Source: Kazachstania africana CBS 2517 (lineage: Eukaryota; Ascomycota; Saccharomycetes; Saccharomycetales; Saccharomycetaceae). From it: a stretch of DNA of 64,000 bases. The stretch is from positions 1-64,000 of the forward strand of contig NC_018949.1 of the NCBI RefSeq assembly GCF_000304475.1. Reading direction: 5' to 3'. The notes under the pieces were generated by a model. It was not told where the DNA came from. It saw only the letters and a list, made by a program, of their open reading frames with translations, and made no database searches. Positions 1-18,372 of this stretch are shown in pieces (positions within the stretch are counted from its first letter, which is position 1; every line of letters begins with the position of its first letter). The position numbers and the translations under genes were made by a program.

Positions 1-3000
1 CTTCCAGCTTCTAATCAAAAAACCAACTTGCTAGGTGAGATGTAATCGAGTTATGTCGAGTACTTTCAAGTTGGATAACTGTCCTTCAAGTCATTTGAAT
101 ACCGACCTTACTAGAAGATACTTGAATATCTTCCAAATCTCTCAAATGTCGAATACTAAATCGATATTTCAGGTCCTCACTTTTTTATATGGCTGATGTG
201 ATATTCAGCCAGGTCATGAATTATTAGATATATTCAATGAGAATGAGGTAACGTATTTGTGTTAATATCATATCTGCAAATTAGAAAGTAAAGCATTTGT
301 CCTTCCCATCAAGCCCGTAAGAAGAAAACTAAAGGTACATGTAGCATTGCTTTTCATGTTTGCGAACTCTCGATGCTATCGGATGCTAACTTAATAGTTG
401 AGTTAGCATAGTATCTCACACGACTACCCAGGAACATTTATGCCCGACTTCGTTTGACAGCTACAACGGTAATACTTTGAATTGTATCAGAAGGAGCGCA
501 GAAAGTAGATTTATCTACAAATTAAGAGGCTTTGTATTTTCGTTGATTGTAAAAAAGTATCATTGTGCGTTCAATGCTCCATGTAATCCACACTAGTAAG
601 GAGAGAGATTATTCAATGACTATGGTGGTAGCACATTTTGATTCACCTGAAACTGTTGCTAAGAGAAGTACATCAACGAGCAAATGGGTTAAACAGCATA
701 GTTGATGGTTTTGCAGTCTTAGTGGCTTTGTTTGAAGAGGATCTGAAGTAACAAGCAGGGATACATTTGAGCCTTTTTTGAAGGTATAAAGATAGGGAAC
801 ATTAGTGTATCCTTGACACAAAAGATTTGTAGCTTTGTTTCGGTTCTAATATCAAAAAATAATGCACCAGAAGATACAGAATGGGGTAGATTTGTTGTTC
901 GTAACAAAGTCAAGGAAAGTAATGTCTATAAGTTTGGATACATCAAGAAGACCAATGACTGTCGATTACCCTTTGTTCATTCTGACTGTAGATACACAGC
1001 TTTTGCAACATTTTAAAAGGCTCAGTGTGGGCCGTACACATGAGTAGGCTTCAATTGACCTCTAACACTACGCAACGCGGTGCAAATATGCCTTTCAAAA
1101 AGTTTAGTTCGAATTAATTGATTATTGAAAGATGTGAAACGTTATCGTGCATTTGCCCTAATTGAGGAAGTGCATTTCTGCAGCGTTTGCCTTTTCTTTA
1201 TCAATAAGAAGTTTTCGTCTTATCACGCTTGTTAAATGGTGGTGTTACTTTCTTCTAAAGATTGAAAAGGTTCAGATGGATTATCTTTGATACAAAATTG
1301 GATTAAAGTTATTTTTCTCCAATAATACAAAATTTGCTAAATTAAGAACTGGTAAATGAAAAACTCACATTAATAAACTGAAATACAGCTGTTAAGAACG
1401 GAATTATTCATGAAAGAATATAATGCCAAATTAGTTGATACCGTGAATTTCAGAATCCTACGAGTAGGACACGCTAGGAATAGCATTTTAAAAGAATAGA
1501 ACCATGAATTAGATTGCATATGGAAGTTGGAAAGACATCATGAGGATCCCATACCAATATGTTTCTATGAGTTGTATTGGTAACGGTATCGTGATCTTGT
1601 TTTTTAATATACATGATAATAATCAAAATGAAAAAGGCAAAACGACATTGAAAAAATTAACTTTATTTTGATAATTTTAGTAACATGCTTCGTTTTACTC
1701 AAAAGGTTACCTTTACTACACCGAGGCGTTTTCAAAATATATCACCATCTCTTACGCCTTTCATGAATTAAAAGCTATCGCCATACTAAATACATTTTCC
1801 TTTGCAATATGAAGATTAAATATAAGCTATATTCTTCGACAAGAGCCACATTTCATTTTAATCAACCATCGATTGAGACGAACATTAGGTCAAGAATCAT
1901 ATCCAATTCTTCTCTTATGCTATATTTTATTCTCAATTTAGGCACATTTTGAGAACATAGACTATTTCAAAAAGTTCCAGAGTAAAGAAAGGTAATTCCA
2001 TATTGCTTCTGCGAGGACAGCCCAGCAACAAACATCAGTGGTTCTCTCTGTCAGTAATTAATGAAGCTACTCGACTCCTAAATTAAGCTTCAATCCATCA
2101 ATGTAAAAAGTCACTCAGTTCTGTCCCATAAGTGGTATTATAATTAGAAACGTGCATTCCTTCAACCAGTCGAAAAAATATAAAGCATTCTCTTCTGAGT
2201 AGCAAATATGACGTTCGTTTTTAATTCCTAATTCCTAGCTGGATGTTTCCTTGAGTAGGGAAAATTCAAAGTTGAATCCACTTCATTTGAGAGGTGGAAA
2301 GCTTTATATTTGCTTCAATAGTGTCTATCTCAGGAATGTCGTCACTTTCCCATATCATCAAGACCAAGACAGCTCTAAAGGAGTTATCTTATACTTTGAT
2401 GTAAACCTAGGTTTGTAAGACAAAGATACGTTGTTACCTGTGCTATTGTACTCACTGATTCTTCGTATATAATAAATATGAATAGTAAGATGCCTCAATA
2501 AGATTGCATGTCTTAAGTTTATTTTTGATTTATCTGGATAACAAATTCCGTTATCTTACTTTCGTATCTTCTCATATGCCCTGAGATTGCTTCATGAGAA
2601 ATCCTTGTAATTGCATATCAGTACGTCCTCTGTGTTCTTCATGTGCTCTTGTGTTTGTCGGTGATTAAACAGGTTTTGATATACCTTATAGACAACTGAG
2701 ATTTCGCCAATCACGGATTGCTTTACACCTGCCCCATCAAAAATTGTTGTTAATGATCATAAATGTTGTAGAAGAACCTACAAATGAATTAATAGGAAGG
2801 TCATGGCTTTGCTGGCAATGTGTTTAGAACTAAACTTCTGATAGTGTTCTAGAAATCTACATCTTTTATATTTAAAGCGTTGTTAACCTGTTCCAGCCGA
2901 CCGAGTTTTTCGAGGAAGAAACTACTGAAGTAACAACTAAAAGTTAATCTAAAAAGAGAAATGTACTCAAAAAGTCTTCACAATTAAAGTATATGAATAA

Positions 3001-6000
3001 AGATAACAGAGAATATATTGCTTATATCTTTTTTTTGTTCTTCTGAGATGCAATTATTACGGCTGACAATAATAGTGTCTGAAGTCGAAATGAGGCCGAT
3101 AATGAAAAGTGAGATTATTACGACTGTAAATCTTCAATCTTGACAATTTTGAAATATAATATATTGTGGGAGGTATCAAACATTTCTGTTCATTCGTGTT
3201 CAAATGTTTCATGGATATCTTAATTTGAGTTTAATCGAGCTCCATTTTTTGAGCTTCCGCATCATTTTGAAAAAGCATCGATTCTAAAGATTTATCCAAA
3301 TAAACGAAAGTACCGTTAAATATCTGGTCAAAAATTAAGTACTAAATAAAACTGTGCTTTTGAATGACTTGTTGGGGGGACTTTCATAAATTCTTGAATT
3401 ATGAAGGTAGCATTGTTCAAAACTTCAAATTTTAGAAAGAACTTAACGCTCTCACCCATTCAATTCTGACGCTTTGGATATTATATTATTGCAGCAGAGC
3501 GTGAACACAACTGAGTATATGATAACAATGAAATAAAGCAGATGCATGCTCCTATGATCTTGCTGCACTTTTCTTTTTCTGGCAGCAACGACAGTCCATG
3601 CGAATTCTCAAATATGCGGGAAAAACAATTATTTCTTTCGAAGTACGAGGCAAACCCATAATCGAGCCAATACAACTAAAAATGCTGAAGAGCCGTGATG
3701 CTTTACGGACAGTGAATTTATAAATGTTACACCAGTTTTCGAATTCGGAGATATTTCGGAAAGCATTGACTAGCCACCGTTCTGAGGCCTAGAAGTAATT
3801 AAAAAAAAAATCTTGTTGGCGACAGAAAATTAATCGATACTTCAAGTTGCAGCATATCTCATAGGATCAAACGATTATTCTGACTCTCCGTTTTCTGTGT
3901 GAAATTAGCTATGTTTATTGATAAAGAATGGTTCGTTTGAAATGAAATGTTCTATATGATGTTCGTAATATGGAAATAAACTTAATGAAAGAAAAGCAAA
4001 CAGAATGTTACCATGAATCATTCAAGGGCCATGGTTATGATACTACTTCCGGTTTTCCTAGATGTAAACTATTCTTTACAGAGGAGGAATCCTCTATGTC
4101 AAATGCCATACAAAATGATTCCACTTTTCAGATAATAAAGGAAATTCTATGTTACTACTGTTTACAATGACCTACAAATTGAGTACACTCACTAGACACT
4201 GACTAGCTGTGATATATGGCATAACTTCATCACCATCCAAGCCAAATTTAACCGCAGTACTAATAAATATATTATATCTAGTATATGATTGGCATAATTG
4301 TCGTCATTGAGGAGCTCTTCCTACCATATCGTATGCCCTTCGAATGTCTTAGAGTGGTTCACAGTACAAGAAGTAAGAAGGCTTAAATTTATAGCAATTC
4401 AGCACCTCCTGTACTCAAGAATCAAGATAGAAACAAATAAATAAAAGTAAACTGAAGCTAGTTTTAAGTTGCCATGAAAGATAGTCAGTTACATACTGGG
4501 ACTGACCTCTTTAATGGCTAACACATCTAAAAGAGATACACCAATATCATTTTTTTCAGTGCGAAAACATTTATCATCCAACGTCTTTTTGTTTATAAAA
4601 TGTGCATTCTTTGAAGTCTATTGCATTCTCCCACTTAATTTTTATTTCTGCGCGAATTAGGGAAAATATAATCTCGAAGCAAGAAATGGATAACGATATC
4701 TAAACTAAAAATATCCCATAAATGGACGTGTCACAGACTCTTCCAACTGTGATTGTATGATTTCGGGTATCCAGCGATTAAAGGCTTCAATTTCTTTCTC
4801 AGGAGCAAGAAAAAACTCTCTTTCTCGATTGGATAAACTTAAAAACACAGTTTTAAACCGCTAGGGTTTTAAATACATCAATAAGAAGATGCTTGAAATG
4901 TACTATAGTAGGAAATTGCTGAAGCTAGTTGTCTTGTCATAAAGAACAAATGATCTATTGATGGGGGATACAAGCAGCTGCAGAATAAATTTTGTAAGTG
5001 AGCTTCGGTAATAGTGTATGCACTTATGAACTACCATCGCTAATAGCGGGTATCTTGGGATTTCTGAAGTACGGGCACACAGAAAATCAGAACTATCTAG
5101 CATTGTTGTTATGGTCCTAATGTAAGTAAAACGAAAAGATGCAGGGTTATGCTAACGCAAATGATTTTTACTAAGTTTAATCCTTTTTACAACGTTACGG
5201 GTGGTGGCCAGACATTTTTACGAACAGTTATAAAATATGCTCTATTAACACCGCATTGATATAGATAATATTGCTGAGGCATTCTTCTTTCAAGCTTAAC
5301 ATGCATTATAAGTGACAAAAATTAACGCACAGGGAGGATTTGTTATCATGATCTTTTACTCGAAGTTGCTATTTCCATGTTATGGTCAATAACAGGAAAA
5401 ATATAGCAAAGTTATTCCAGGCATTCTCACTGTCCATCGCCTTCTCACAGGAAATTTGATTTCAGGTAACCCGCGAGGTGTTGGTCACAGAACTTGCATA
5501 CAGCCCTAAAGTTCCCACCGCAAAGGTGTTTTCATTCTCAACACGATGCTCGACACGTAGATGGAACACATGGTGTTCATATCGGTTGGATGTTTTCGAT
5601 TAGTGGACGAACTACATCACTATTTGTACATAATCTGGAGACCTGTAACGATTCAAGATGAGAAGCTGTAGAACCTTCATTTGAAGTTTTTGAGAACTTT
5701 TGTGTGCTATATTAGTCGAAGAAAACGTAGTACAGTAAGTATTAAATTCCATTTTGATGAAGAAAGTGCCAAATAGATAATTTCACTGCAGTTTTATAAA
5801 TTGCTTATTTTACAAGTTCCTAATTTTACGATTGTATAGGAGTTGTCGATTACACTGATAGGCTAGTAGCACACACTTGTCCCCGCTTTGAGTAATCTGT
5901 ATTCCACATAAGATCGGGGGTCCATTATAGAATGTCATTTTCTAAAGCAGGTCTTGTCAAGTCTACCTCTGTCTATGCCCAGACAATCAAATTTAGTAAA

Positions 6001-9000
6001 TGTGACAGAATTACTTTGTAGGGTAACCCATTCATTTTTTCCTAAAAAGAGGAAAAGGACAAGCTTACTAGTTCTGTAATTTGTCAAAACGGTATGTTTA
6101 TATTGAAAAGCCTAAACTGTCCAGAATTTGTCCTGTTCATTTCTTTTCTATTTCACCTTCAATAATGATTTCGAATTTTGATTGCAGTTGAAATAATGTT
6201 GTTGATGCAATCTCAAAGCATACTTTCCGCTCTTTCGATTGCCACACCAGATCAGTTCCATATAGGATTATGCGATGTTAAAAATTTCAGTAAAACAAAT
6301 CAGAGACCCTTTAATGGAGCAGAGTCAGAGGTCTGCATGAGAAGTACATTAATTACTTATTAACTTTTGGAATAGGATGCTGGATTAAGAAAATAATTTT
6401 AAAAAACTAGGAGCCCTTCCCGAAAAAAGATCGTATAGTGAACGGAGGCAGAGAATAGCTCAGATCTGTTGGGGAATGATCTACCGCCACTTACTGTCAC
6501 ATATTATTCTATTAATAATGAACCAAACGATGATTGGGACGCCTAAAGAGCATTTGATGACTAATAGCGTAACATATTACCAGGAAGTCTCCTTTATAGA
6601 TGTCTTATATTTTTGGCTTATCGACTTTTTGATTCCTCCGAACTCATAAAAACCAGCATTAGACTTCATTCGATGAAAACGCCTGGCTCCTCATTTGACA
6701 CACGAGATGTATTTCTTCGCATTTGTATCAGAGACCAAAAACTATCAAGTTGCGCCGTAAAATGGAGCTCGATGCCAATTTTAGGTTAAAGTACTGTTAT
6801 AGGACAACGTTAACCACTTGTATTACTACAGTGCCTCTTAATAACGTTTTGATTGGTTGCAAAACAAATAACGAGACTTCTAGAATTGACGAACATTACC
6901 TTACCCTGTTTCTTTCTGACAGTAACTTGTCCAAGCTAACGAATATAAATTGAAAATAATGATTCACCTTATATTATCTTTGTAATTGGTTGTAACTGAG
7001 CTGTCTAGTTAAAGCTATGATTTTCAAGTATAACGTAACTTGGTAGCATTTCTGCTTTAATAGCGACTATTGAGGTTCCGGGAGCTTCTGTGATATTTTT
7101 GTTGCCGGACACCTGATCTAGATGTTATGTAATCGGTTGCATTTTAGCGGTTTGCTATATTTGATTGAGATCATTACAGATTTTTCCTGAGTATCTATCA
7201 TCCAACTTTCGACGACACCAAATCTCGCCGCTAATGTGATGTGCCGCATTTCTTAACTTTTTAATCCCGACGTCTTCTCGGAGGTATATGCCCTACAGGG
7301 AGACCAACATACGAAGCTCGATGAAAGACCGCTTATCGGATAGTATATACCTTTTTGGCTAGTATACTGTCTTCTAGGTTCATCAAAAAGAGTACATAAG
7401 TATTTAGATATGCCCAGAACTCTTCACATTCCAACAATGGCGGAATGTATAACTGATATTTCCGATGCTCAAGTCACTTCTTGTATTTGTAACGGCACAC
7501 AAGAATCGAACAATTTGCTGGTGGATGAGCAAATTTTATGGTATTACAAACACTAGCATAAAAAGTAGGTACGTGCTTCTAAATAAATCAGGAGGAATTT
7601 TAAAATATAACTAACCGGTACACAGGGCCAACCTAGAAACATGGAAGAATAAGTCGCGACAAAAATTTGACTTGATGCAAAAGATATTAATCAATGGAAA
7701 CTTCTGATTTAGTGGCTGATCCTCTGAGAAACAAACTGTTTGGCAAGCACAATAAAAAAGTCAGTAGTAACACGCATTAGAGAGATACGGGAAGGACCAA
7801 TTATTTTACCATGTTAATGAAAGAAGAATTATTTTTTATGAAAGTTACAGTTTCTTGAAAAAAAACACTTATCAAAATTCTTTACCAGAAAATGTTTGTA
7901 AAAATTTTAATCGAGGTCGCTTTTGCGAGCAGCAAAATAACCAACAATAACGCTGGCCTTTTTTACTTTTTCCATCGTTTCTTGTCCTTTTTCCTCTAGG
8001 TTTGGCGTACAACGACGAAAAATTGAGGATAATGAATTGTTTTCTATCAAATTGACTGTTATGAAATTTAGGCTGATTCAAAATTTTTGGTAGACAAAGG
8101 CACCAGAGTAAAAAACTGCAATCTCGGGATTATATTCTCAGTCATAGAAATTTTTAACTTTTCTGAATAGTTGTCAAGATTCCTCCCCCCTCCTTGAGGA
8201 AATATGTTTTTAGCCTCTTGTCAGCTTTTGCAGCATAACCTACTCTACGACAAGGCTTAATGCATCGTTCTGTACTCTGAAAGACCTCAGCGGAACCTTT
8301 TGCTGCCCTGATCATGAAGGCAGAGGACCTTTATGAATCTTTTTGGACACGAAGAATTGTCGCACATAATGACAATTACGTCATAATCGTCTTTTTTATT
8401 TCAAAACTTCGAGCGATGAAAGTGTCAACTTGGGGTTGCTTTTTTTTCCTGCAGAATTCCTTAGTGACAATCATGAGGGCCCAAAAAAACAATATAACCC
8501 CCCTCCCCTGAGGCAAAGTTCCGTGCTGATGAGTTAAAGTTTTTCGAGGTTCTGCAACTTTTCTCAGGTAAGCAGCAGAATTCTCTTTTAGGAAACGAGA
8601 AGAAGAATGTGAAACTTCTAAGAAAAGCAAAAGTTAGTTGGTGGTATTCAGGATTGAGTCACTCTTTCTATAAAACACAGCGGCTGCAACAATTGAAAAA
8701 ATATTGGTGAAAATTTTCAGCTATTGTGGCCTGATCGTTGAAGGTATTAACCCATTGTTACCTTCTATCTAATCATAACATACCCCCATAGCGTTTTGAA
8801 GCAGCACATAATATAAGCGTTATTCCTAGTGATACTTCGATGTCGTTAGGAAACTCAGGGAACGAAATAATTGATTTTAATGGAGACCGTATTTTGTTTA
8901 TTTTCGCAAAGTAATTGGGACCAATATACGAGCAAGCTGTAGATGTTTCCTTTAAACCGCTCTAATTTTATGTAAGAATGTGTGCCGTTTGAGATAGCAA

Positions 9001-9110
9001 GTATTTTGGGCGACCTCACATATAAAAGGGCTCAATAAACTATATTATCGTTATTCAATTTTGGATAAAATATTTATTACAATTAGACGTTTAGTCAAGA
9101 CAGTGGCTCT
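1..9110. other. Gene-poor region, no supported gene
   Basis: About 9 kb with no reading frame longer than roughly 85 codons that looks protein-like, no tRNA and no long terminal repeat that I can see. The short frames have no recognisable domain and no biased codon use. Base composition resembles the other intergenic DNA here. A TATAAAAG box at 9021-9028 belongs to the small gene that follows. A desert of this size is unusual for a budding yeast; a subtelomeric or recently decayed segment is possible but not shown. Confidence 0.6.
9021..9028 (+). promoter_or_regulatory. TATA box upstream of small membrane ORF
   Basis: A TATAAAAG sequence lies 83 bases before the ATG at 9111, a normal yeast TATA-to-start distance. 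It suggests that the locus was, or still is, transcribed. Confidence 0.4.
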
Positions 9111-9314
9111 ATGGAAGAGGATTTCGAAGAAACCTACGAATTCACTAAATCATTAGTCTTAAAAGTCTCAGAAAAAATTACCCTAGCTATTTTTTTCTAT
9201 GTTCTTCTCCCTTTGGTTATTTTACATTTATTTTATTCGTGGTGTGTACGGTACTTCAACCGAAAGCACTTCAGTGGAAAGCTCAGTTCACCTGCCCCCA
9301 ATGTTGAGCATTGA
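9111..9314 (+). CDS. Small single-span membrane ORF overlapping a toxin-like frame
   Basis: This 67-residue frame has an acidic N-terminus (residues 2-8), a membrane segment at about 24-46 and a short basic tail. Its membrane core VLLPLVILHLFY matches VIIPVVVLRLLY in the ORF at 11105 at every position by identity or conservative change, so the two are probably related. From 9187 another frame is open over the same DNA and carries the toxin-like sequence described next. The locus may therefore be one decayed gene (signal-anchor plus secreted domain) broken by a frameshift, or a separate small protein such as an immunity factor. Function unknown; the TATA box at 9021 fits expression. Confidence 0.4.
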   Translation: MEEDFEETYEFTKSLVLKVSEKITLAIFFYVLLPLVILHLFYSWCVRYFNRKHFSGKLSSPAPNVEH

Positions 9315-9906
9315 AGTAGGAAATTCAAACATATCTCTTGTTCATCATTTCGAGAGCGATTCAGTGGCATTAGAAAAACGTACCGATGTAAAAGATTGTT
9401 TGAATACAGTCTAGAAGGGAGCGACTTGGGCAATAGCTCATCCTCAAAAGATTACCGAGTGGTTACGTGAGATCAAGGTGCTAGTAAAAGAGGCCCACCT
9501 TAGGTCTGATGAAAAACAATGTGGTTTAGCAATTGGAACAAGTGGTGACATGAAATATGCGTACTCCGCGAGTGGTTCTAATTGTGACACTACTGCACAA
9601 GAGGCTACCATTGAAGGAGCAATTGACAAAGCATTTGAAAAATACATCGTAAATGACCTTAATGCTGTTTGGTGTATGGAGCTCTCACATGGTGGCTCCT
9701 GGAAGGGATATGCGCTCATTGGACATGGTGAAAGCTGGCCGTCCTATATATGGTGTGGTTCTGGAAACAAGAACACATGCGTCTCAGGTGGAAAGGGTGA
9801 TGTAGTCAAAAGAGGGTTTGGCGGATATGATTCGATTTACACTGACGGTAACTACACCGCCTATATGTATAGTGACGGTATGTTACTTCACAATGAAGAG
9901 AAGTAA
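9199..9906 (+). pseudogene. Killer-toxin-like secreted protein relic, one in-frame stop
   Basis: One frame runs from an ATG at 9199 to the stop at 9904-9906, interrupted by a single TAG at 9412-9414. In order it shows a short hydrophobic start that could be a signal peptide, a Ser/Thr-rich stretch, an N-glycosylation sequon (NIS), a Lys-Arg Kex2-type site at 9376-9381 and a C-terminal domain. Six cysteines follow the Lys-Arg site, one before the stop and five after it, and the domain contains SHGGSWKGYALIG. This order is known from yeast killer preprotoxins and related small secreted proteins; the assignment is by architecture only. The ORF at 15.5 kb carries a similar G-x-W...GYAL motif. The part after the stop (from about 9478) is intact for over 140 codons, so decay looks recent. 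The locus is described as broken; whether a functional allele exists elsewhere is unknown. Confidence 0.45.
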
Positions 9907-10976
9907 TCCCGTGAAACTCAAACATCGTAGTGTCACCTTCTCATTTACTTTGAAGTGAGATCTCTTTTTACCGCAACACAATCGAGAAAAAATAAAAAAA
10001 AAATTCATACGTGCGAATTTGTTTAAGCTATATAAAATCCTATGTATTCATAATATTGCTTCAATGATTTTGTATGTTAAATGCAGCAACTGTGCTTCTA
10101 AAGTATAAGTTTTTTTTCCTAGCCTCAATCTTGCAAAAATATATTATTTGTCGCTAGTACTTTGATACTAAAATAAGCTCTTATAGCTGGGCAACTGTTT
10201 TGGCAGCTTCTCAGGAATAGAAATTTTGCAGATAGAAAAAGTACACATTCATATGTTCATAGTTGGGTGAACCTAAAGAAATATTACAGCAGCTACTGTT
10301 AGCTGCTCAATTGATCCTAAACATAGATTAATAAGCAGTTAAATTACCATGCAGAAGAGCTACGTCAATATTTTCCAATTCTTCTGAAAACTGGTTGTCG
10401 GCGTTCTGCTTTGTTTCGGTTTGGATTATATAATTCACTAGTTTGTCTTTGTCTACCGTAATGTGCTATGAAGTTTTGACACGGACGTTCCTCCTTATCA
10501 ACAAATTCTCCCGATAGATTTGATATTTGTTACGGCATCGAAAGATGAGTTTCACTCAGAACCTTCTAGGGCCTTAGTTGACAAGCCTATTTGATTATAG
10601 CTATGTATCGTACTCTCTTCACCTGGACCAACAGAAAGAGAGCTTCTCGAGACATACTTCCGTTTTCGCCTGTTCTCAATGTCCTGCTTAGCAACTGAAT
10701 AGATAATTGTTGAAATATTTTTGACACTTGTTTAGGTTAGTTTTTAGTCTCATTTGGACTTCCTATGCCTTCACGGCCGATTACTACAAGCCACGTACGG
10801 AAAGATTCGGAGCTAGAGTTCGTGAGAGAATGTTCACTTCATTCGAGGCTTCGACATTTTCAAGTAAAGTTCTTTGCACGTTCCCTCAGTAAATTTAATT
10901 ATTTTTTCGTTTCTTGAGGTTTCCCGTACGACAAAAATGGCAACGGCGCAACAATGTATTTTAATTGCAATTTTCT
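9907..10976. other. Intergenic, nothing recognised
   Basis: About 1.1 kb of AT-rich sequence. I see no coding frame with protein-like character and no RNA gene. Confidence 0.5.
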
Positions 10977-10984
10977 TATATAAA
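10977..10984 (+). promoter_or_regulatory. TATA box upstream of the 11105 ORF
   Basis: TATATAAA followed by AG lies 121 bases before the ATG at 11105. Spacing and sequence match a canonical yeast TATA element. Confidence 0.4.
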
Positions 10985-11104
10985 AGAGAAAAAAGGGCTA
11001 GAAATTGGTCAATTATTTTTGGGTTTTTGCTTCTTTTGTCACTTTCGATTCAAATATCAACACTGTATTATTGGTGTTACATTAATTTGACTGAATAACT
11101 AGTG

Positions 11105-11413
11105 ATGGTAGAACTGGATGAATTAGAAAGGTTTGTTGAGCGTGCGGTTTCAATTGCAATTCCAATCTCGTTGACAAGCATATGGTTAAATGTAATTATT
11201 CCTGTGGTTGTTTTGCGTCTGCTGTATTTAATGATTTCAAGACCAAGGGGACAAAAAACCCCAAAATTCAAACCTGGCCATAAGCTTTTAAAGAGAAGCC
11301 ATCTGCCTTCTAAAAAAATGAACACTAGATTATTTTGGATTAAATCAGTGAGTGATGATTTCTTCTTTAAGAATCAAAGGAATAATGCTGCTGGAGTGAG
11401 ATATAGTTTCTGA
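11105..11413 (+). CDS. Small single-span membrane protein, unknown function
   Basis: A 102-residue frame starting at the ATG at 11105. Residues 1-12 are acidic, residues about 17-43 form one membrane segment, and the tail from about 47 to 75 is strongly basic, which predicts an acidic tail on one side of the membrane and a basic one on the other. The membrane core VIIPVVVLRLLY mirrors that of the ORF at 9111, making the two a small family about 2 kb apart. No catalytic motif is visible. Neighbouring relics look like secreted toxins, so a role in toxin processing or immunity can be imagined, but nothing in the sequence proves it. A consensus TATA box precedes it. It could also be a chance ORF. 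Confidence 0.4.
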   Translation: MVELDELERFVERAVSIAIPISLTSIWLNVIIPVVVLRLLYLMISRPRGQKTPKFKPGHKLLKRSHLPSKKMNTRLFWIKSVSDDFFFKNQRNNAAGVRYSF

Positions 11414-12869
11414 ATATATACGTATATTATACTTGTAACAAAGTGTGTCCCTTCCCACCGAACCAAAATCCCCCAAAATGCCACTATTATATCACCAGCT
11501 TGTTATCGATACAAGACAAGTCTTTTGATGAAATAACGCTGTACTGGACAGTGCTTTCGTTAGATATTTGAATCTTGATGTTTATATGATCGAGCTTATA
11601 AAGCCTCTATTGAACTTTCATTATCAAGAGTGACGGATCATTATTGATTGTATTCCGAATGAAAAGTGATGAAGCCACTGAGATGTGAATTATCAGTTTT
11701 CAACAAAATCAACAGAAAACATCTAAGCAGCAAATTATTCATAAATGCGCAATATTTTTACAGAATTCAGCGTATTGTTACCTTTGCACGCTCAGAAGAG
11801 TTAACATAAAGAAATCGATTTAAATTCCCCGTTTGAGTGAATACAAGATGACATAGATTATCCATCATAAATCACTTTATACTTGATTTGATACTTGCAA
11901 AAATGTCGCAGTTCACTTTCTGGGAAGTGTTAGCTTGGTTACTTTTGGAAAAGAAACTGAAAGGATATTGTCCACCTGAAATCTTTACTAAACTGAAACA
12001 TTCATAGGTTGTTCATTTGAATGAAAGATCGGGGTATCAAGATACGGCTAATGTCACTCCTACTAAAGGGGAGAAAAGTGGGGAGGGCAGCGAAGGCTTA
12101 AGTAACGTACAGACATATGTCGTTGCTTTATAATAGCATATCTTAGTAAAGTTTTCAAAAATCTATTCATTTTGTCTTTCATACAAGATTCGTCAATTCG
12201 TCGAGTGTATTCTTGGATATGCCAGAGAAACTTGGAGTTTACTTTGTCTTCTAATGTTTGATAGTTTTTCCCTGATGTTTATCTGTCGAGAACTTTTTCT
12301 CGTTTTGACAAAGAAGATCTTTCTTGCAAGAAAAAGACAAAAAGCGAGCATAGAGATGCCCGACTGTAAAACACGATTAATCGCAAAAACAAATCGTAAA
12401 GCTTCTCATCTTGCAAATGTTAAGTATTGGGTATAACATATGTCACGTGTATTGCCTCCATTACTTGTCTCGACTCGCCCACAACGTCAAACGATGGAGT
12501 TGCAACGTGTGTCACTGTCTTTCCAATTAACATTTATTCAAATCTCAATTTGAAATGACATAATAATCCACACAGACAGTGGCTCTCCACGTAAGACAGT
12601 CTTCACTTTTCTAAATAAAAATATTCGTCCCTATATCAACGCATACCCATGCATCTGTCAGGCAATCTGACTCTGCAATCCTCATTTCCAGCTCTTCTTT
12701 CCAGAGAGCTCAGCAATAAGCGTCACTTCCACGGCTTCTTACTGCTTTTCAGCCACCCAACCCTAAATTATCCACACTAACCCTGATGTTTAACCGGAAT
12801 CCCGCATTTTTGCCTGCGAATCTTTTTTTGCATTCCTTTCGCCACTTTTTTCGTTTCTCAGTCGAACAC
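11414..12869. other. Intergenic, nothing recognised
   Basis: About 1.45 kb without a supported gene. One GTCACGTG at 12438-12445 resembles a Cbf1/CDEI site but has no centromere-like flank. AACCCTAA, the Tbf1 core motif, occurs at 12759-12766. Confidence 0.45.
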
Positions 12870-13311
12870 TCACAATCCTTCGTCACGGCCTCGAGCCCAT
12901 TTTCGGCCTACAGCCCGAAAATATCGATTAAAACTGTTTCCCAATATACAATCTTGCAGAAATGTTAAATAATTGTCCATTTCCAGTAGAGAATGCTTTT
13001 GCTGCCAAATTGCATTCATTATAACAGACCATCTTTGCTCTGCAATTGAACGCTCGATTATACTACGAGGTATCCTTATATAAAAATCTGGAACTGTTCT
13101 ACCTAATTGTATATATAATTCACAAACGTCTATAAGCAGCCAGTACCTCCCAATTTCTAACATTGAGATATGAAATCCAAGCTAACTGTTCGAACGGCAT
13201 TTTACCACTACTTAATTTTGAAGTGCTTATTCTATGTATAGGTAGGTGCAGATCAAGAAAGATGTAAGTAAATTTCTCTAGCAGCCTTGTATTACGTAGG
13301 TTGGTTTCCAT
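12870..13311 (-). pseudogene. Decayed ORF readable in two overlapping frames
   Basis: Two minus-strand frames overlap, one from an ATG at 13311 down to 13120 and one from 13163 down to 12870. Both have normal protein composition (mixed charged and hydrophobic residues, tryptophans, phrases such as EQLAWISYLNVRNWEVL and RSIIERSIAEQRWSVI). Read one after the other they look like a single protein with one frameshift between about 13120 and 13163. I do not recognise the family. A chance pair of ORFs is possible, but the compositional quality is better than in the flanking short frames. Confidence 0.3.
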
Positions 13312-13742
13312 CCTATGATCCTTAAAATGTCAATCATAGTACTAATCCATGATGAGGATATATACTTTTCGACTAAGAGGAATATTTACCGATTCTTGCC
13401 AGTGATATTTTTTGATTACACATGATCCCATTTATGATTCAGAAATTTTAGCTCTACGATGTAATTTAGCTCTTTTCCTAAAAACTATTATGTCCGCCAC
13501 CATATAATTGGCGGAAGATATTGCACTAAGGATTAGTTTAGGTGGCACACTCTGACGCCAATGTTATCGTACTATCCAAGCCACTCTAACAAACAAAAAT
13601 AGATCTCACTAAATGAATTTCAAACGTGTATGACAAACATGCATGGTTTTGGTTGTAATATTGGCTAAATGGTTAACAGAGTTCAAATAGTCTATGGCCA
13701 ATAATTCTCTCAGTCGGCTAATTTGTTTCCTGAAAACTACAT

Positions 13743-14075
13743 CTATACTGCAGATAGGCTACCAGGAAAAACAATTGAGCTCACTGAGCCTGCTGCTGCG
13801 ATCCCGGCTAATCCAATGGTACAGACATGTAGTTCCCTTTTAGTTTCGTTGGTAAAACCATGATGTGCCCACTCCTTGACAAATGCTGGGCATTGAGACG
13901 CAGTAAGGAAAACCGAAGCAATCCCTATACCTAAAAATATTCCCTTCCCTCCACCTACTATCAACCTTTTCCATAAACAAGCTTGTATGAGTAAGCATCT
14001 CGTACTAGGATGTAGTGCTACAGCAGTCGCTAAAATTATCGGAAGGTAAATCCAATAACTTCTAACGAAAGTCAT
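13743..14075 (-). CDS. Hydrophobic 110-residue protein, unknown
   Basis: The frame starts at an ATG at 14075 and stops at 13743. It has a hydrophobic N-terminus (about 6-22) that could be a signal peptide, a second hydrophobic stretch (about 43-60), then an N-x-T sequon directly followed by Lys-Arg (TNETKR, about 75-80), and a small-residue hydrophobic C-terminus rich in Gly, Ala and Ser. A sequon followed by a Kex2-type site is what the neighbouring toxin-like relics also show, so this may be a truncated preprotoxin-like gene. A short intact membrane protein is an alternative. No homologue recognised. Confidence 0.35.
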   Translation of the reverse strand: MTFVRSYWIYLPIILATAVALHPSTRCLLIQACLWKRLIVGGGKGIFLGIGIASVFLTASQCPAFVKEWAHHGFTNETKRELHVCTIGLAGIAAAGSVSSIVFPGSLSAV

Positions 14076-15455
14076 TTTTTGTTGTTGTGTGTTTTAGTCT
14101 TATTTAGCTGAAACGTTTTAAAGCTTCCTTTCCTATATAGAACTGCCTTCTTTATCGTATCCGAAACCAAACTCCAGAAATACGTGCAATCTGCTAAAAT
14201 TCCCGAAGCCTTCTCCAAGAAAAGGTATCTTGGTTAAAGAATTCAGAGATTTTTGATAGCAGGCTTTTTGATTTAATTAGAGTGCACAATGATTAATGTG
14301 TTATATTTAATTTTCAAAGTGGTCTGAAAACTCAATAGACTGTTTTGCACACAGGAACTTTGGAGTAGCATTTTGCAAAACATTGATCTAAACCAAAATA
14401 ATTACCTATTCAAAAAAGTATCTTATAATAATTAATTAGTCTAGAATGCTGGTAGACGCCTGCAGCGACTATGCAACCTTCAAAGCTATGATTTTTCCAT
14501 CATTTGTGAGACATTCTCAACATTCAACAGGATTACGTAGTTTATATGGCAATGCTTCATATAAATCGGGCAATTAGCTTGGCACGGTAACAAAAAATCC
14601 TATTTGAAAATTAAGAGTAATATAGTAGACGTTCGTTATAATGCGGTCCCAATTCCTACGATCTGTGCACTTGGAACTGAATTGATGATTGAGGATCCTT
14701 TACCCTCACTTTTTTTGAAAGCACTTCTCTCAATTCCAGAATACTATGAGCTACCGATTCTGGTCTCATCTGACTGTAGAGAAATAAAAAGGAAGACACG
14801 CCTGTTTACTTTCTTACTTTTAAGCTGTTATATGTGACCTTGTACGTGACTCAACTGCACAGTCCTCGTTCAGAATAAACAAATTACTACCAGAATTATA
14901 GTTGAAATTGCCTTTACTTTCAAGGACAATGAATATTTCGACAATTCTCCGCGGTATATACCTACCTGTATTCAAAATGAGCAGAGAGATTTAGTAATTA
15001 ACGTCAGGCTGTAATATAGGTGTATTAATTACCGAAAAAGTTCATTAGTTGGATATATATCCACATTATGGGCCTTGCGATATAATGAGGGTTCACATCG
15101 GATTATGTTATGATAACTAGTCTCGATAACGGCAATTTTTTACGAAGAAGATACCTTGTTAGCGACATAGAATACTAGGCAAAAATTCAAACATGGCCTA
15201 TCAGAGATACATCAGAGATACTAACTTTGCAGCATATACGAGTACAGTTCCTCTCAAAAATCTCTAGATCATTTTTCCTAGTATTCTGTTGTGCATATAT
15301 TCTTAATTACCTTACTCTATGACTTGGAAATGCTGGGCGGTCCGATGCAGTGATTCTCATGTCAAAGAAGCGTACATAGACTTCAGTACATTAAAACACC
15401 CGGACTGAGATCATTCTAGAGTTTAATTTGCCAACATTATTTATAGTAGACGTAA
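14076..15455. other. Intergenic, nothing recognised
   Basis: About 1.4 kb of AT-rich sequence with no supported gene. Short frames present look random. Confidence 0.45.
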
Positions 15456-16239
15456 TACTTTGGCGGCATTTCGGGCATACAGTGGGAATTCTTGTGTTTC
15501 ATTCCAGATGTAATGTTTAAAGACGACTTCAACGTTGCTAATAAGCCTGAGACAAGTTCTGCTGTTGTTGCTGGTGGTACGACTGTTGCGTGGGCGTACT
15601 TCTCTGGAAGTGTGTCTGCTAAGAGATACATGATTCCAGGAGATTTGGACTTTGGCCCTGATACACTTTTAGCCGATGATATAGCTGCTGGTAGAGAGGT
15701 CTGGTATGATTACACACTAGAAGTTTATTCGGCGGTATCTGACGCGCCTAATCAGCACGGTTTGAGTCCTCTTCATGTGGAAGCTCCACCTGCTGGTATT
15801 TATATCCACCACGAAGGCAACTGGGAACATCATGGGTATGCTTTGCATATGGTCGGTTCAGACCACGATAAAGTCGCGGTGCTACGTGCAGTCGATCTTA
15901 GTACCGTTATGGTAGCTTACGCTTAGCATATGAAAACAGGCTCAACAGTTTCTACCAAAAATGTGAATTACACCTTAACAAAACGCTCAACCGCATATGA
16001 ATGGGCCTCATATGACAATTGGGGCTGTCAATGATGGGTACTAGAAAGATATTTTACTGTAGGAAGAGTGGGTTACTTTTATTAACGATTATGAATTGGA
16101 TGGTGATATAGGTATAATGTGACAGAGACAGCCCTGCACAACTCAAGGTTGTTATGAGTACTGGAATAAATATTGTGCTACATGGGGCTTCTTCGAAACC
16201 GAAAGGGTTAGCTCAGCCATGGTAGGAGAAGATATATAG
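15456..16239 (+). pseudogene. Decayed secreted toxin-like gene in several frames
   Basis: A frame is open from 15456 with its first ATG at 15513 and a stop at 15924-15926. It contains a Lys-Arg dipeptide and the motif EGNWEHHGYAL, which resembles the GGSW-KGYAL motif of the relic at 9.2-9.9 kb. Directly downstream a second frame (15930-16034) has an N-Y-T sequon, then Lys-Arg and an aromatic-rich start, before a stop. A third piece (about 16122-16239) has three closely spaced cysteines (PCTTQGC...YC) and several Trp and Tyr. No ATG opens the 5' end and stops separate the pieces, so I read this as a broken two-part secreted protein gene of the killer type. Family assignment is tentative. Confidence 0.4.
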
Positions 16240-17469: not shown

Positions 17470-18372
17470 TCAGTTAGAATCATCTCCGATCAAGGGTAGC
17501 TTTTGAAGCATAGTTTTCAAATTTATAGCATCCCAAGGCAAATATTCTGCGATTGTAATCCCAACAATAGCACAATCTTTTTTAACTTGATTGACCAGGT
17601 TTATGACGTTCAACATACTTAGTTCACCTTGAGCAATTCCATCAAAGGCATTTTCAGGTACATTTGGACGTGAAAAATACAATGAATGGAATTTAGCCTC
17701 ATTCAATACGTCCAGATCAATATGGATTGCGAGTTTTTTAATATTTCTGTCATGAATCCATTGGAAAACAGATTTGGCTCCGGCTTGAACTTCCTTTGCA
17801 GAACATGTTGAAATGTTATACTTGGTTAAAAATTCCTGTTCATAGTCCAGTGGATCGTGAATTCCAGCAATCATAACATTGGAGGAACCTGTTGGTTTTG
17901 CTACAAGTTTTGAGACAATGTCATTATCACCATGGCCCATTAAATTTCCCAGGACATGAGCATGGACATGGTTGAACTGACCAGGTTGCGAAACGTCTGG
18001 GTGTGTGTCAATCCATAAAATTCCAAAATCTTCACCGTATTTCTCACTCAAATAAGCAAATGGTGCCAGGGACACTAGGCAATCTCCACCTAATGTCACG
18101 ATTTTTGCAGGTTTATTTTTCTCTAGTTCATCTCTGGCAGCTGTGAGCTGTGTAAGTAACTCCGGTTTGAATACGAGACCATCTTCTTCCACTTCTTTCA
18201 CGTCCTTGGTAAAATCACCTTCAAATTTTGGAACTGGGACACAAATTACTGGCATGCTCGTTGCGGGCGAAAGCCATTCTAGTAACTCTGAACCAAATTG
18301 ATAAGCTGGCAAAACACCTCCTTGCCATAACGGAAATACAAGACGAACAGTAGAATTATCACCGGAACTCAT
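17470..18372 (-). CDS. Arginase-superfamily ureohydrolase (GGDC type)
   Basis: The 300-residue protein has the alpha/beta fold signatures of the arginase/agmatinase/formiminoglutamase superfamily of Mn-dependent amidino hydrolases. The metal-site motifs are in order: GGDC at 95-98 (Cys where arginases have His), IDTHPD at 121-126 and HIDLDV at 217-222, with a late Glu at 276. The N-terminal LVFPLWQGG start and the GGDC variant are features I associate with a bacterial arginase-like subfamily rather than yeast Car1, which has GGDH. The exact substrate (arginine, guanidino acid or another) cannot be read from sequence. The gene is intact and has a TATATAAA box (18475-18482) about 103 bases upstream. 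It sits between decayed DNA and the hexokinase gene, at the edge of the conserved block, which fits an acquired gene. Confidence 0.8.
   Translation of the reverse strand: MSSGDNSTVRLVFPLWQGGVLPAYQFGSELLEWLSPATSMPVICVPVPKFEGDFTKDVKEVEEDGLVFKPELLTQLTAARDELEKNKPAKIVTLGGDCLVSLAPFAYLSEKYGEDFGILWIDTHPDVSQPGQFNHVHAHVLGNLMGHGDNDIVSKLVAKPTGSSNVMIAGIHDPLDYEQEFLTKYNISTCSAKEVQAGAKSVFQWIHDRNIKKLAIHIDLDVLNEAKFHSLYFSRPNVPENAFDGIAQGELSMLNVINLVNQVKKDCAIVGITIAEYLPWDAINLKTMLQKLPLIGDDSN

What the first reader, a model, noticed from the sequence alone, without database searches (positions are those of the whole stretch)
9111..16239. Cluster of decayed killer-toxin-like genes with paired small membrane ORFs
Two relics (9.2-9.9 and 15.5-16.2 kb) share a G-x-W...GYAL motif, and both carry Lys-Arg dipeptides beside N-glycosylation sequons, the layout of yeast killer preprotoxins. 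A third hydrophobic ORF (13.7-14.1 kb) has the same sequon plus Lys-Arg arrangement. Two small membrane proteins share a membrane motif, one overlapping a toxin-like frame. Together they look like a chromosomal toxin family, with a possible membrane partner or immunity component, in decay. I see no single intact toxin gene.
Basis: partly seen in the sequence, partly recalled or inferred. Interest (0 to 1): 0.8.

Follow-up and report, generated by a model that had tools for sequence, protein, structure and literature searches.

The report
Yeast toxin gene overlapping membrane ORF
A chromosome end of the yeast Kazachstania africana carries broken relatives of two known yeast killer-toxin families, and one family has a small membrane-protein reading frame hidden across the start of the toxin gene that may protect the producer cell.

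Summary
The window is the left end of contig C10 of Kazachstania africana. The killer-toxin reading is largely right, but two families are present. (1) 9199-9903 is a DUF6736/CSS2 gene; published work ties CSS2 to the killer toxin Klus and lists K. africana with genes like the Klus-like toxin Ksino. This copy has one in-frame stop; an intact paralogue lies at C6:17161-17868. (2) 13.7 kb (minus) and 15.5-16.2 kb (plus) are fragments of a K1/K2-superfamily-type gene. The shared GYAL motif does not join them.

The new point is the small membrane ORF (9111-9311) laid over the Klus-like gene's signal peptide in another frame. It recurs in the same relative frame over a paralogue only 40-46% identical (C7:621.7 kb), and stands alone at 11105. 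In the overlap the small frame is better conserved than the toxin frame and beats synonymous-codon nulls; profiles built without a member find it. Between the two closest copies, however, dN/dS shows no purifying selection. I infer an overlapping self-protection gene. Immunity in the Klus family is unexplained, so this is testable, but untested.

The parts
9111..9314 (+). small membrane ORF, 67 aa: one hydrophobic stretch with a central Pro (ITLAIFFYVLLPLVILHLF), net charge -4 before and +3 after it; candidate self-protection protein
   Evidence: hydropathy and charge; profile relation to the C7 and 11105 members; 79% paralogue at C6:17073
9199..9414 (+). 5' part of the Klus-like (CSS2/DUF6736) gene: hydrophobic start, sequon, Lys-Arg; ends at an in-frame TAG
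9415..9906 (+). 3' part of the same frame: DUF6736 domain (9448-9741), Lys-Arg, sequon
   Evidence: Pfam PF20521 E 6.6e-26, 91.3 bits against a cut-off of 27; genome search
9021..9026 (+). TATA-like element upstream of both start codons (inferred promoter); no ATG between it and 9111, by eye
   Evidence: sequence
11105..11413 (+). orphan small membrane ORF, 102 aa, same family as 9111-9311; no DUF6736 remnant found beside it
   Evidence: C6 counterpart frameshifted
13743..14075 (-). N-terminal, hydrophobic (alpha-type) fragment of a K1/K2-superfamily-type killer gene
   Evidence: 47% match to C7:18387-18701
15456..15926 (+). middle fragment of the same gene type on the other strand; 5' part missing
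   Evidence: relatives at C6:23453 (83%) and C7:18660 (80%)
15927..16031 (+). next fragment, same frame after a stop; sequon plus Lys-Arg
16123..16239 (+). C-terminal fragment; matches the C5:11642-12613 gene, which carries a DUF5341 match
   Evidence: phmmer E 9.9e-10 in a small local set
1689..12465 (.). subtelomeric block shared with C6:9678-20404, 94.6% identical, with a step from 0% to about 10-15% divergence at the small ORF start

Best explanation
The 9.1-9.9 kb locus is one copy of an overlapping two-product killer locus. Frame A (9199-9903) encodes a secreted Klus-family preprotoxin: signal peptide, pro-region, Kex2-type Lys-Arg, DUF6736 domain. Frame B (9111-9311) starts 88 bases earlier and encodes a small single-span membrane protein (67 aa here, 50 aa over the C7 gene) whose membrane helix is written over the toxin's signal peptide. 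The small ORF has the first start codon after the TATA-like element, in a weak context, so ribosomes would make the membrane protein and leak on to the toxin start. The membrane protein most likely protects the producer from its own membrane-active toxin, as the K2 signal peptide does for K2. In this copy the toxin frame has a stop while the small frame is intact, and at 11105 a small ORF stands alone: the order of loss expected of toxin and immunity. SHOWN: family membership, the overlap, recurrence in a distant paralogue, better conservation of the small frame in the overlap. INFERRED: secretion, translation of the small ORF, leaky scanning, toxicity, immunity. The 13.7 and 15.5-16.2 kb pieces are separate relics of a K1/K2-superfamily-type gene.
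For: DUF6736 match; the C6 paralogue KAFR_0F00115 is named 'Secreted protein CSS2'. CSS2 is stated to be homologous to Klus (PMC13211469), and K. africana is listed with Ksino-like genes (PMC12875307). A low-confidence model of the C6 protein matches LDL, DUF26 proteins, Zt-KP4, ginkbilobin-2 and, weakly, SMK; the paper names these homologues for Klus and KHR. A same-family small ORF overlaps the distant C7:621745 gene in the same relative frame. A profile from the C7 and 11105 members alone finds C10 at E 1.8e-4 and C6 at 0.0084, next unrelated frame 0.97, among 6,894 frames; without C7 it finds C7 at 0.0078, next unrelated 0.3. In the overlap (C10 against C7) the small frame scores BLOSUM 44 with 12 of 15 positive pairs, the toxin frame -2 with 4 of 16. 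Synonymous-codon nulls reach the observed score in 1, 10 and 49 of 20,000 draws (8,784, 8,762 and 8,710 of them free of stops). Overlapping ORFs of hydropathy 1.9 or more: 4 of 14 DUF6736 genes (two of them an identical pair, not this family by profile), 0 of 24 other window genes, 0 of 4 DUF5341 genes; the 1.9 line was drawn after seeing the values.
Against: Between C10 and C6 all 8 differences in the non-overlapping part of the small ORF are nonsynonymous in it; over the whole small ORF dN is 0.112 and dS 0.062, so no purifying selection is seen there. The net charge before the helix is -4 in C10 but 0 in C6, so the acidic N-terminus is not firm. Only one distant pair and one orphan support the family. 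In the first 49 bases, upstream of both toxin starts, the small frame scores no better than the toxin frame (both 0). 12 of the 15 DUF6736 places have no member. No homologue in the protein database, which returned few fungal proteins. The C6 counterpart of the orphan is broken. No expression or killing data. The codon nulls take toxin residues as given and treat codons as independent or simply linked, so their probabilities are rough.
Confidence: 0.42

Rival explanations
1. The small ORF is a regulatory upstream ORF: it overlaps the toxin start and throttles toxin translation, and its peptide has no function of its own.
For: It starts first and overlaps the toxin start in the C10, C6 and C7 copies; weak start contexts; dN/dS between C10 and C6 is not low.
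Against: Amino-acid sequence, not only position, is alike between C10 and C7, and a member stands at 11105 with no toxin gene found beside it.
Confidence: 0.22
2. The small frame is a by-product: signal peptides are T-rich, so the shifted frame also reads as hydrophobic, and the likeness is chance.
For: The hydrophobic stretch lies over the signal peptide; an overlapping hydrophobic ORF of another sequence sits over the C7:450 kb genes.
Against: Codon nulls (1, 10 and 49 of 20,000), left-out profile hits and the free-standing member at 11105.
Confidence: 0.15
3. The membrane protein is a partner in attack or secretion (a processing, anchoring or second toxin component) rather than immunity.
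For: Same locus and overlapping frames; nothing here separates partner from immunity.
Against: It survives where the toxin has a stop (C10) or no toxin was found (11105); a membrane peptide as immunity factor has a precedent in K2 (PMC13404059).
Confidence: 0.15
4. The DUF6736 proteins are ordinary secreted CSS2-type proteins and not toxins, so no immunity is needed.
For: CSS2 itself is described as of unknown function; 13 of the 15 DUF6736 places have no stop inside the match, though one of these is a short fragment.
Against: Sequence and fold ties to Klus and Ksino; K. africana is a killer yeast (PMC7888664), though its killing may come from other toxins it carries.
Confidence: 0.2

Closest known systems
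Klus / CSS2 (YFR020W) / Ksino killer-toxin family (Pfam DUF6736)
   Same: DUF6736 domain, 235-aa intact paralogue against 242 aa for Klus, six cysteines after the signal peptide, Kex2-type Lys-Arg, alpha/beta-sandwich-like model
   Different: carries a small membrane ORF in another frame over the signal peptide; no such partner is mentioned in the sections and passages I read of PMC13211469 and PMC12875307
K2 killer toxin, whose signal peptide gives self-protection (Prins and Billerbeck 2024, seen only as cited in PMC13404059)
   Same: a short membrane peptide coded at the 5' end of the toxin gene as (here inferred) immunity factor
   Different: in K2 it is the toxin's own frame; here it is a different frame over the same bases
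K1 superfamily, K2/KHS-type genes (Pfam DUF5341) and KKT genes of K. africana (PMC7888664)
   Same: hydrophobic alpha-type segment, sequons, Lys-Arg, and in the C7 copy the K-x-C ... E-x-Y ... GGxDxxC spacing printed for K2-like beta subunits
   Different: broken and split over two strands in the window; best Pfam score below the cut-off. Which published KKT or K2-like gene it is could not be settled
wtf poison-antidote genes of fission yeast (recalled, not searched)
   Same: poison and antidote coded by overlapping stretches of one locus
   Different: same frame from different starts there; different frames here, and no sequence relation tested

Membership tests
Klus/CSS2 (DUF6736) | DUF6736 domain above the curated cut-off | tested here: met
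   91.3 bits against 27 for 9415-9903; 104.3 for the C6 paralogue
Klus/CSS2 (DUF6736) | N-terminal hydrophobic secretion signal and Kex2-type dibasic site before the domain | tested here: met
   MFFSLWLFYIYFI start and ALEKR in the 9199 frame; by eye, no signal-peptide predictor was run
Klus/CSS2 (DUF6736) | six cysteines in the C-terminal domains | tested here: met
   C6 paralogue: Cys 67, 108, 129, 159, 186, 194 after the signal; Klus described with six in its last two domains, seven in all in PMC12875307
Klus/CSS2 (DUF6736) | alpha/beta-sandwich fold like SMK, Zt-KP4, Gnk2, DUF26 | tested here: inconclusive
   model mean pLDDT 44; Z, rmsd, aligned: 4nds 6.1, 2.2, 74; 6gre 5.4, 2.9, 83; 8acx 5.0, 3.5, 84; 3a2e 4.5, 3.4, 85; 1kvd 2.9, 3.8, 68; a designed protein (9r2v) lies among them at 4.6
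Klus/CSS2 (DUF6736) | killing of yeasts | not testable with these tools
   no assay; window copy has a stop
K1/K2 superfamily (DUF5341), for 13.7 and 15.5-16.2 kb | DUF5341 above the cut-off | tested here: not met
   C7 copy C-terminal piece 16.4 bits against 25, E 0.011; the four window pieces no DUF5341 match
K1/K2 superfamily (DUF5341), for 13.7 and 15.5-16.2 kb | K-x-C, E-x-Y, GG-x-D-x-x-C at the printed K2 spacing | tested here: inconclusive
   all eight residues at the same spacing in C7:19092-19391, counted by eye (against PMC13404059 section 12); window copy keeps K-x-C but lacks the Tyr and the last Cys
K1/K2 superfamily (DUF5341), for 13.7 and 15.5-16.2 kb | sequence match to an intact member | tested here: met
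   C5:11642-12613, itself with DUF5341 at 27.8 bits against 25: 62.8 bits to the C7 C-terminal piece, 26.8 to the window C-terminal piece; the 13.7 kb, 15.5 kb and 15.9 kb window pieces gave no match of their own in that set
Killer-toxin immunity factor, for the small ORF | confers resistance to the cognate toxin | not testable with these tools
   needs an experiment
Killer-toxin immunity factor, for the small ORF | membrane protein encoded with the toxin | tested here: met
   sequence level only: hydropathy 2.0-2.5 over 19 residues in the C10, C6, C7 and 11105 members; overlap in the C10, C6 and C7 copies

The most novel reading that the evidence does not exclude
A Klus-family killer toxin and its dedicated immunity protein are encoded by the same bases in two frames, the immunity protein's membrane helix being the toxin's signal peptide read out of frame. 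This would be a new way of coding toxin and self-protection in a eukaryotic nuclear genome, and would answer how Klus-family producers survive.
Probability: 0.3. Interest if true: 0.82.

Novelty: new variant of a known kind. Interest (0 to 1): 0.6.

Why it matters
How Klus-family producers are protected is not settled; [quoted passage not shown] A membrane ORF overlapping the toxin start and conserved in a distant paralogue is a concrete candidate that simple genetics could confirm or kill. It would also give a case of dual-frame coding with a functional reason for the overlap: toxin cannot be inherited without protection.

Tried and rejected

Papers: no paper in the held library names DUF6736. 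Searches for overlapping, bicistronic or leaky-scanned killer immunity (7 of 7, 15 of 44 and 6 of 6 papers listed) showed no title or abstract start on a Klus-family partner; apart from the four papers cited I saw listings only.
Full report
WHERE. The window is G000:C10:1-64000 of an 11.13 Mb, 12-contig genome. The C6 paralogue of the 9.2 kb gene is KAFR_0F00115 of Kazachstania africana CBS 2517, on a contig of the same length. The first 17 kb hold no ATG ORF of 150 aa or more, as in a subtelomere. C10:1689-12465 matches C6:9678-20404 at 94.6% over 10,832 columns, and 13340-15906 matches C6 in two pieces at 89.7% and 91.4%.

THE SMALL OVERLAPPING FRAME. 9111-9311 starts 88 bases before the toxin ATG and overlaps it by 113 bases. 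It has one hydrophobic stretch (hydropathy 2.53 over 19 residues), net charge -4 before and +3 after; in C6 the charge before is 0. A whole-genome search with it at E<=1 found C10 and C6 only. Reading the starts of the other DUF6736 genes showed a like ORF over C7:621745, a paralogue 40% identical by BLAST and 46% over trimmed columns: METLTPENIIVIGKVANEITNVFIARIWFNILLPLIFMWLLFNYCLVRRR, starting 49 bases before the toxin ATG, in the same relative frame. The orphan at 11105 has the same layout; in these ORFs the Pro of the helix is residue 33 or 34 (counted by eye).

TESTS OF THE SMALL FRAME. (a) Compartment-wise shuffles, 10,000 each way: C10-C7 score 50 against a mean near 0, none reached; C10-11105 p about 0.003; C7-11105 p about 0.005. 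This does not allow for the toxin frame. (b) In the 49 bases from the C10 toxin ATG on, C10 and C7 differ at 24; small frame BLOSUM 44 with 12 of 15 positive pairs, toxin frame -2 with 4 of 16, third frame -4 with 6 of 16. C6-C7 gives 35 against 8. In the 39 bases before it the small frame has 11, the toxin frame -2, the third -9. (c) Holding the toxin residues and drawing synonymous codons, 1, 10 and 49 of 20,000 draws reached the observed score under three linkage modes; 11,216 to 11,290 draws of each had stops. (d) Profiles with members left out: C7 plus 11105 finds C10 at 1.8e-4 and C6 at 0.0084, next unrelated 0.97; without C7, C7 at 0.0078, next unrelated 0.3; 6,894 frames from 291 kb of held and partly redundant loci. 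(e) Control for overlapping ORFs of 45 aa or more: 7 of 42 genes in all, 2 of 24 other window genes (24 of the 27 ORFs; two antisense and one open-ended ORF left out), 5 of 14 DUF6736 genes (C10 not among them; some starts of decayed copies are only the first ATG of the open stretch), 0 of 4 DUF5341 genes; with hydropathy 1.9 or more, 4 of 14, 0 of 24 and 0 of 4. Two of those four are an identical gene pair whose overlapping ORF has a different sequence.

RESULTS AGAINST. C10 and C6 are identical from 8891 to 9116 and diverge from the third codon of the small ORF on. All 8 differences up to the toxin ATG are nonsynonymous in the small frame; for the whole small ORF dN 0.112, dS 0.062. That fits no constraint, or diversifying change, but not purifying selection. 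In the 49 bases upstream of both toxin starts the small frame is no better conserved than the toxin frame (both 0). 12 of 15 DUF6736 places have no member of this small family; the sister clade (C4, C7:450, C12, C3:13471) lacks it. The family was not found in the protein database.

THE TOXIN FRAME BETWEEN COPIES. dN 0.131, dS 0.214 over 234 codons, the stop codon left out, with the strongest change in 9415-9540 (dN 0.344, dS 0.491); no indel in 9087-9903 but several in the next 300 bases. So the frame was probably kept open for much of the time since the copies parted, and the stop looks young. The C10/C6 divergence is patchy: mostly 2% or less in 250-base bins at 3.5-9.0 kb (3.6% in one bin), 13-17% in the bins of 9.25-10.5 kb, about 0.8% at 10.5-11.0, 17% at 11.0-11.25, falling to 6-7%, as gene conversion between chromosome ends would leave.

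THE OTHER FAMILY. 13746-14075 (minus) matches C7:18387-18701 at 47% and 15513-15923 (plus) matches C7:18660-18992 at 80%: they are parts of one gene type that lie together at C7:18333-19391, itself broken into pieces in different frames. The C7 C-terminal piece carries K-x-C, E-x-Y and GGxDxxC at the exact spacing printed for K2-like beta subunits (PMC13404059 section 12; other passages), scores 16.4 bits for DUF5341 (cut-off 25), and aligns with the C5:11642-12613 gene of 323 aa (62.8 bits), which itself passes for DUF5341. C10-C6 dN/dS is about 0.25 for the 15.5 kb piece (0.076 and 0.301) and about 0.55 for part of the 13.7 kb piece (0.089 and 0.163), so constraint probably acted before decay. 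K1-like genes and pseudogenes of K. africana, mostly subtelomeric, are described in PMC7888664 (passages and section 19), which also mentions K2-related genes in K. africana.

HOW IT MOST LIKELY WORKS. Inferred: transcription from the TATA-like element at 9021 gives an mRNA whose first ATG is 9111 in a weak context (T at -3); some ribosomes make the membrane protein, others pass to 9199 and make the preprotoxin. The membrane protein, N-terminus outside and basic end in the cytosol by the positive-inside rule, shields the producer's membranes. K2 sets the precedent of a 5'-coded membrane peptide as immunity factor (PMC13404059). The pattern of loss agrees: of the toxins of this clade, the two intact ones (C6, C7:621745) have the small ORF; the one with a stop (C10) keeps it; 11105 has it alone. 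But the C6 counterpart of 11105 is broken. The numbers are small and this is suggestive only.

VERDICT. My estimates: family identity about 0.95 for the Klus/CSS2 gene, about 0.8 for the K1/K2-type relics. Small frame as a real, conserved protein: about 0.7. Immunity as its role: about 0.4.

Noticed in passing
window 1689-12465 and C6:9678-20404: Two chromosome ends alternate between nearly identical and about 15% divergent stretches; one edge falls at the start of the small ORF.
   Followed up: partly
C7:450756-451109 (-) and 452343-452696 (+), L033: Two DUF6736 genes of identical protein sequence lie head to head about 1.2 kb apart, with an overlapping hydrophobic ORF of another sequence over each start.
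   Followed up: no
C9:590503 (L026) and C3:1321950 (L027): Closely alike DUF6736 genes within about 20 kb of the ends of two contigs.
   Followed up: no
window 13060-13182: Short stretch also found on C6 (84%) and C11 (76%) near contig ends, a possible subtelomeric repeat; 12937-13018 matches C12 (76%).
   Followed up: no
window 10937-11095: 53-aa hydrophobic ORF ending about 10 bases before the 11105 ORF; its C6 counterpart is frameshifted.
   Followed up: partly
window 17470-18372 (-), C6:24315-25094 (-) and C6:1592-2760: A 300-aa arginase-like gene (named by eye, no family search) with stretches about 82-83% identical in DNA at two places on C6.
   Followed up: no
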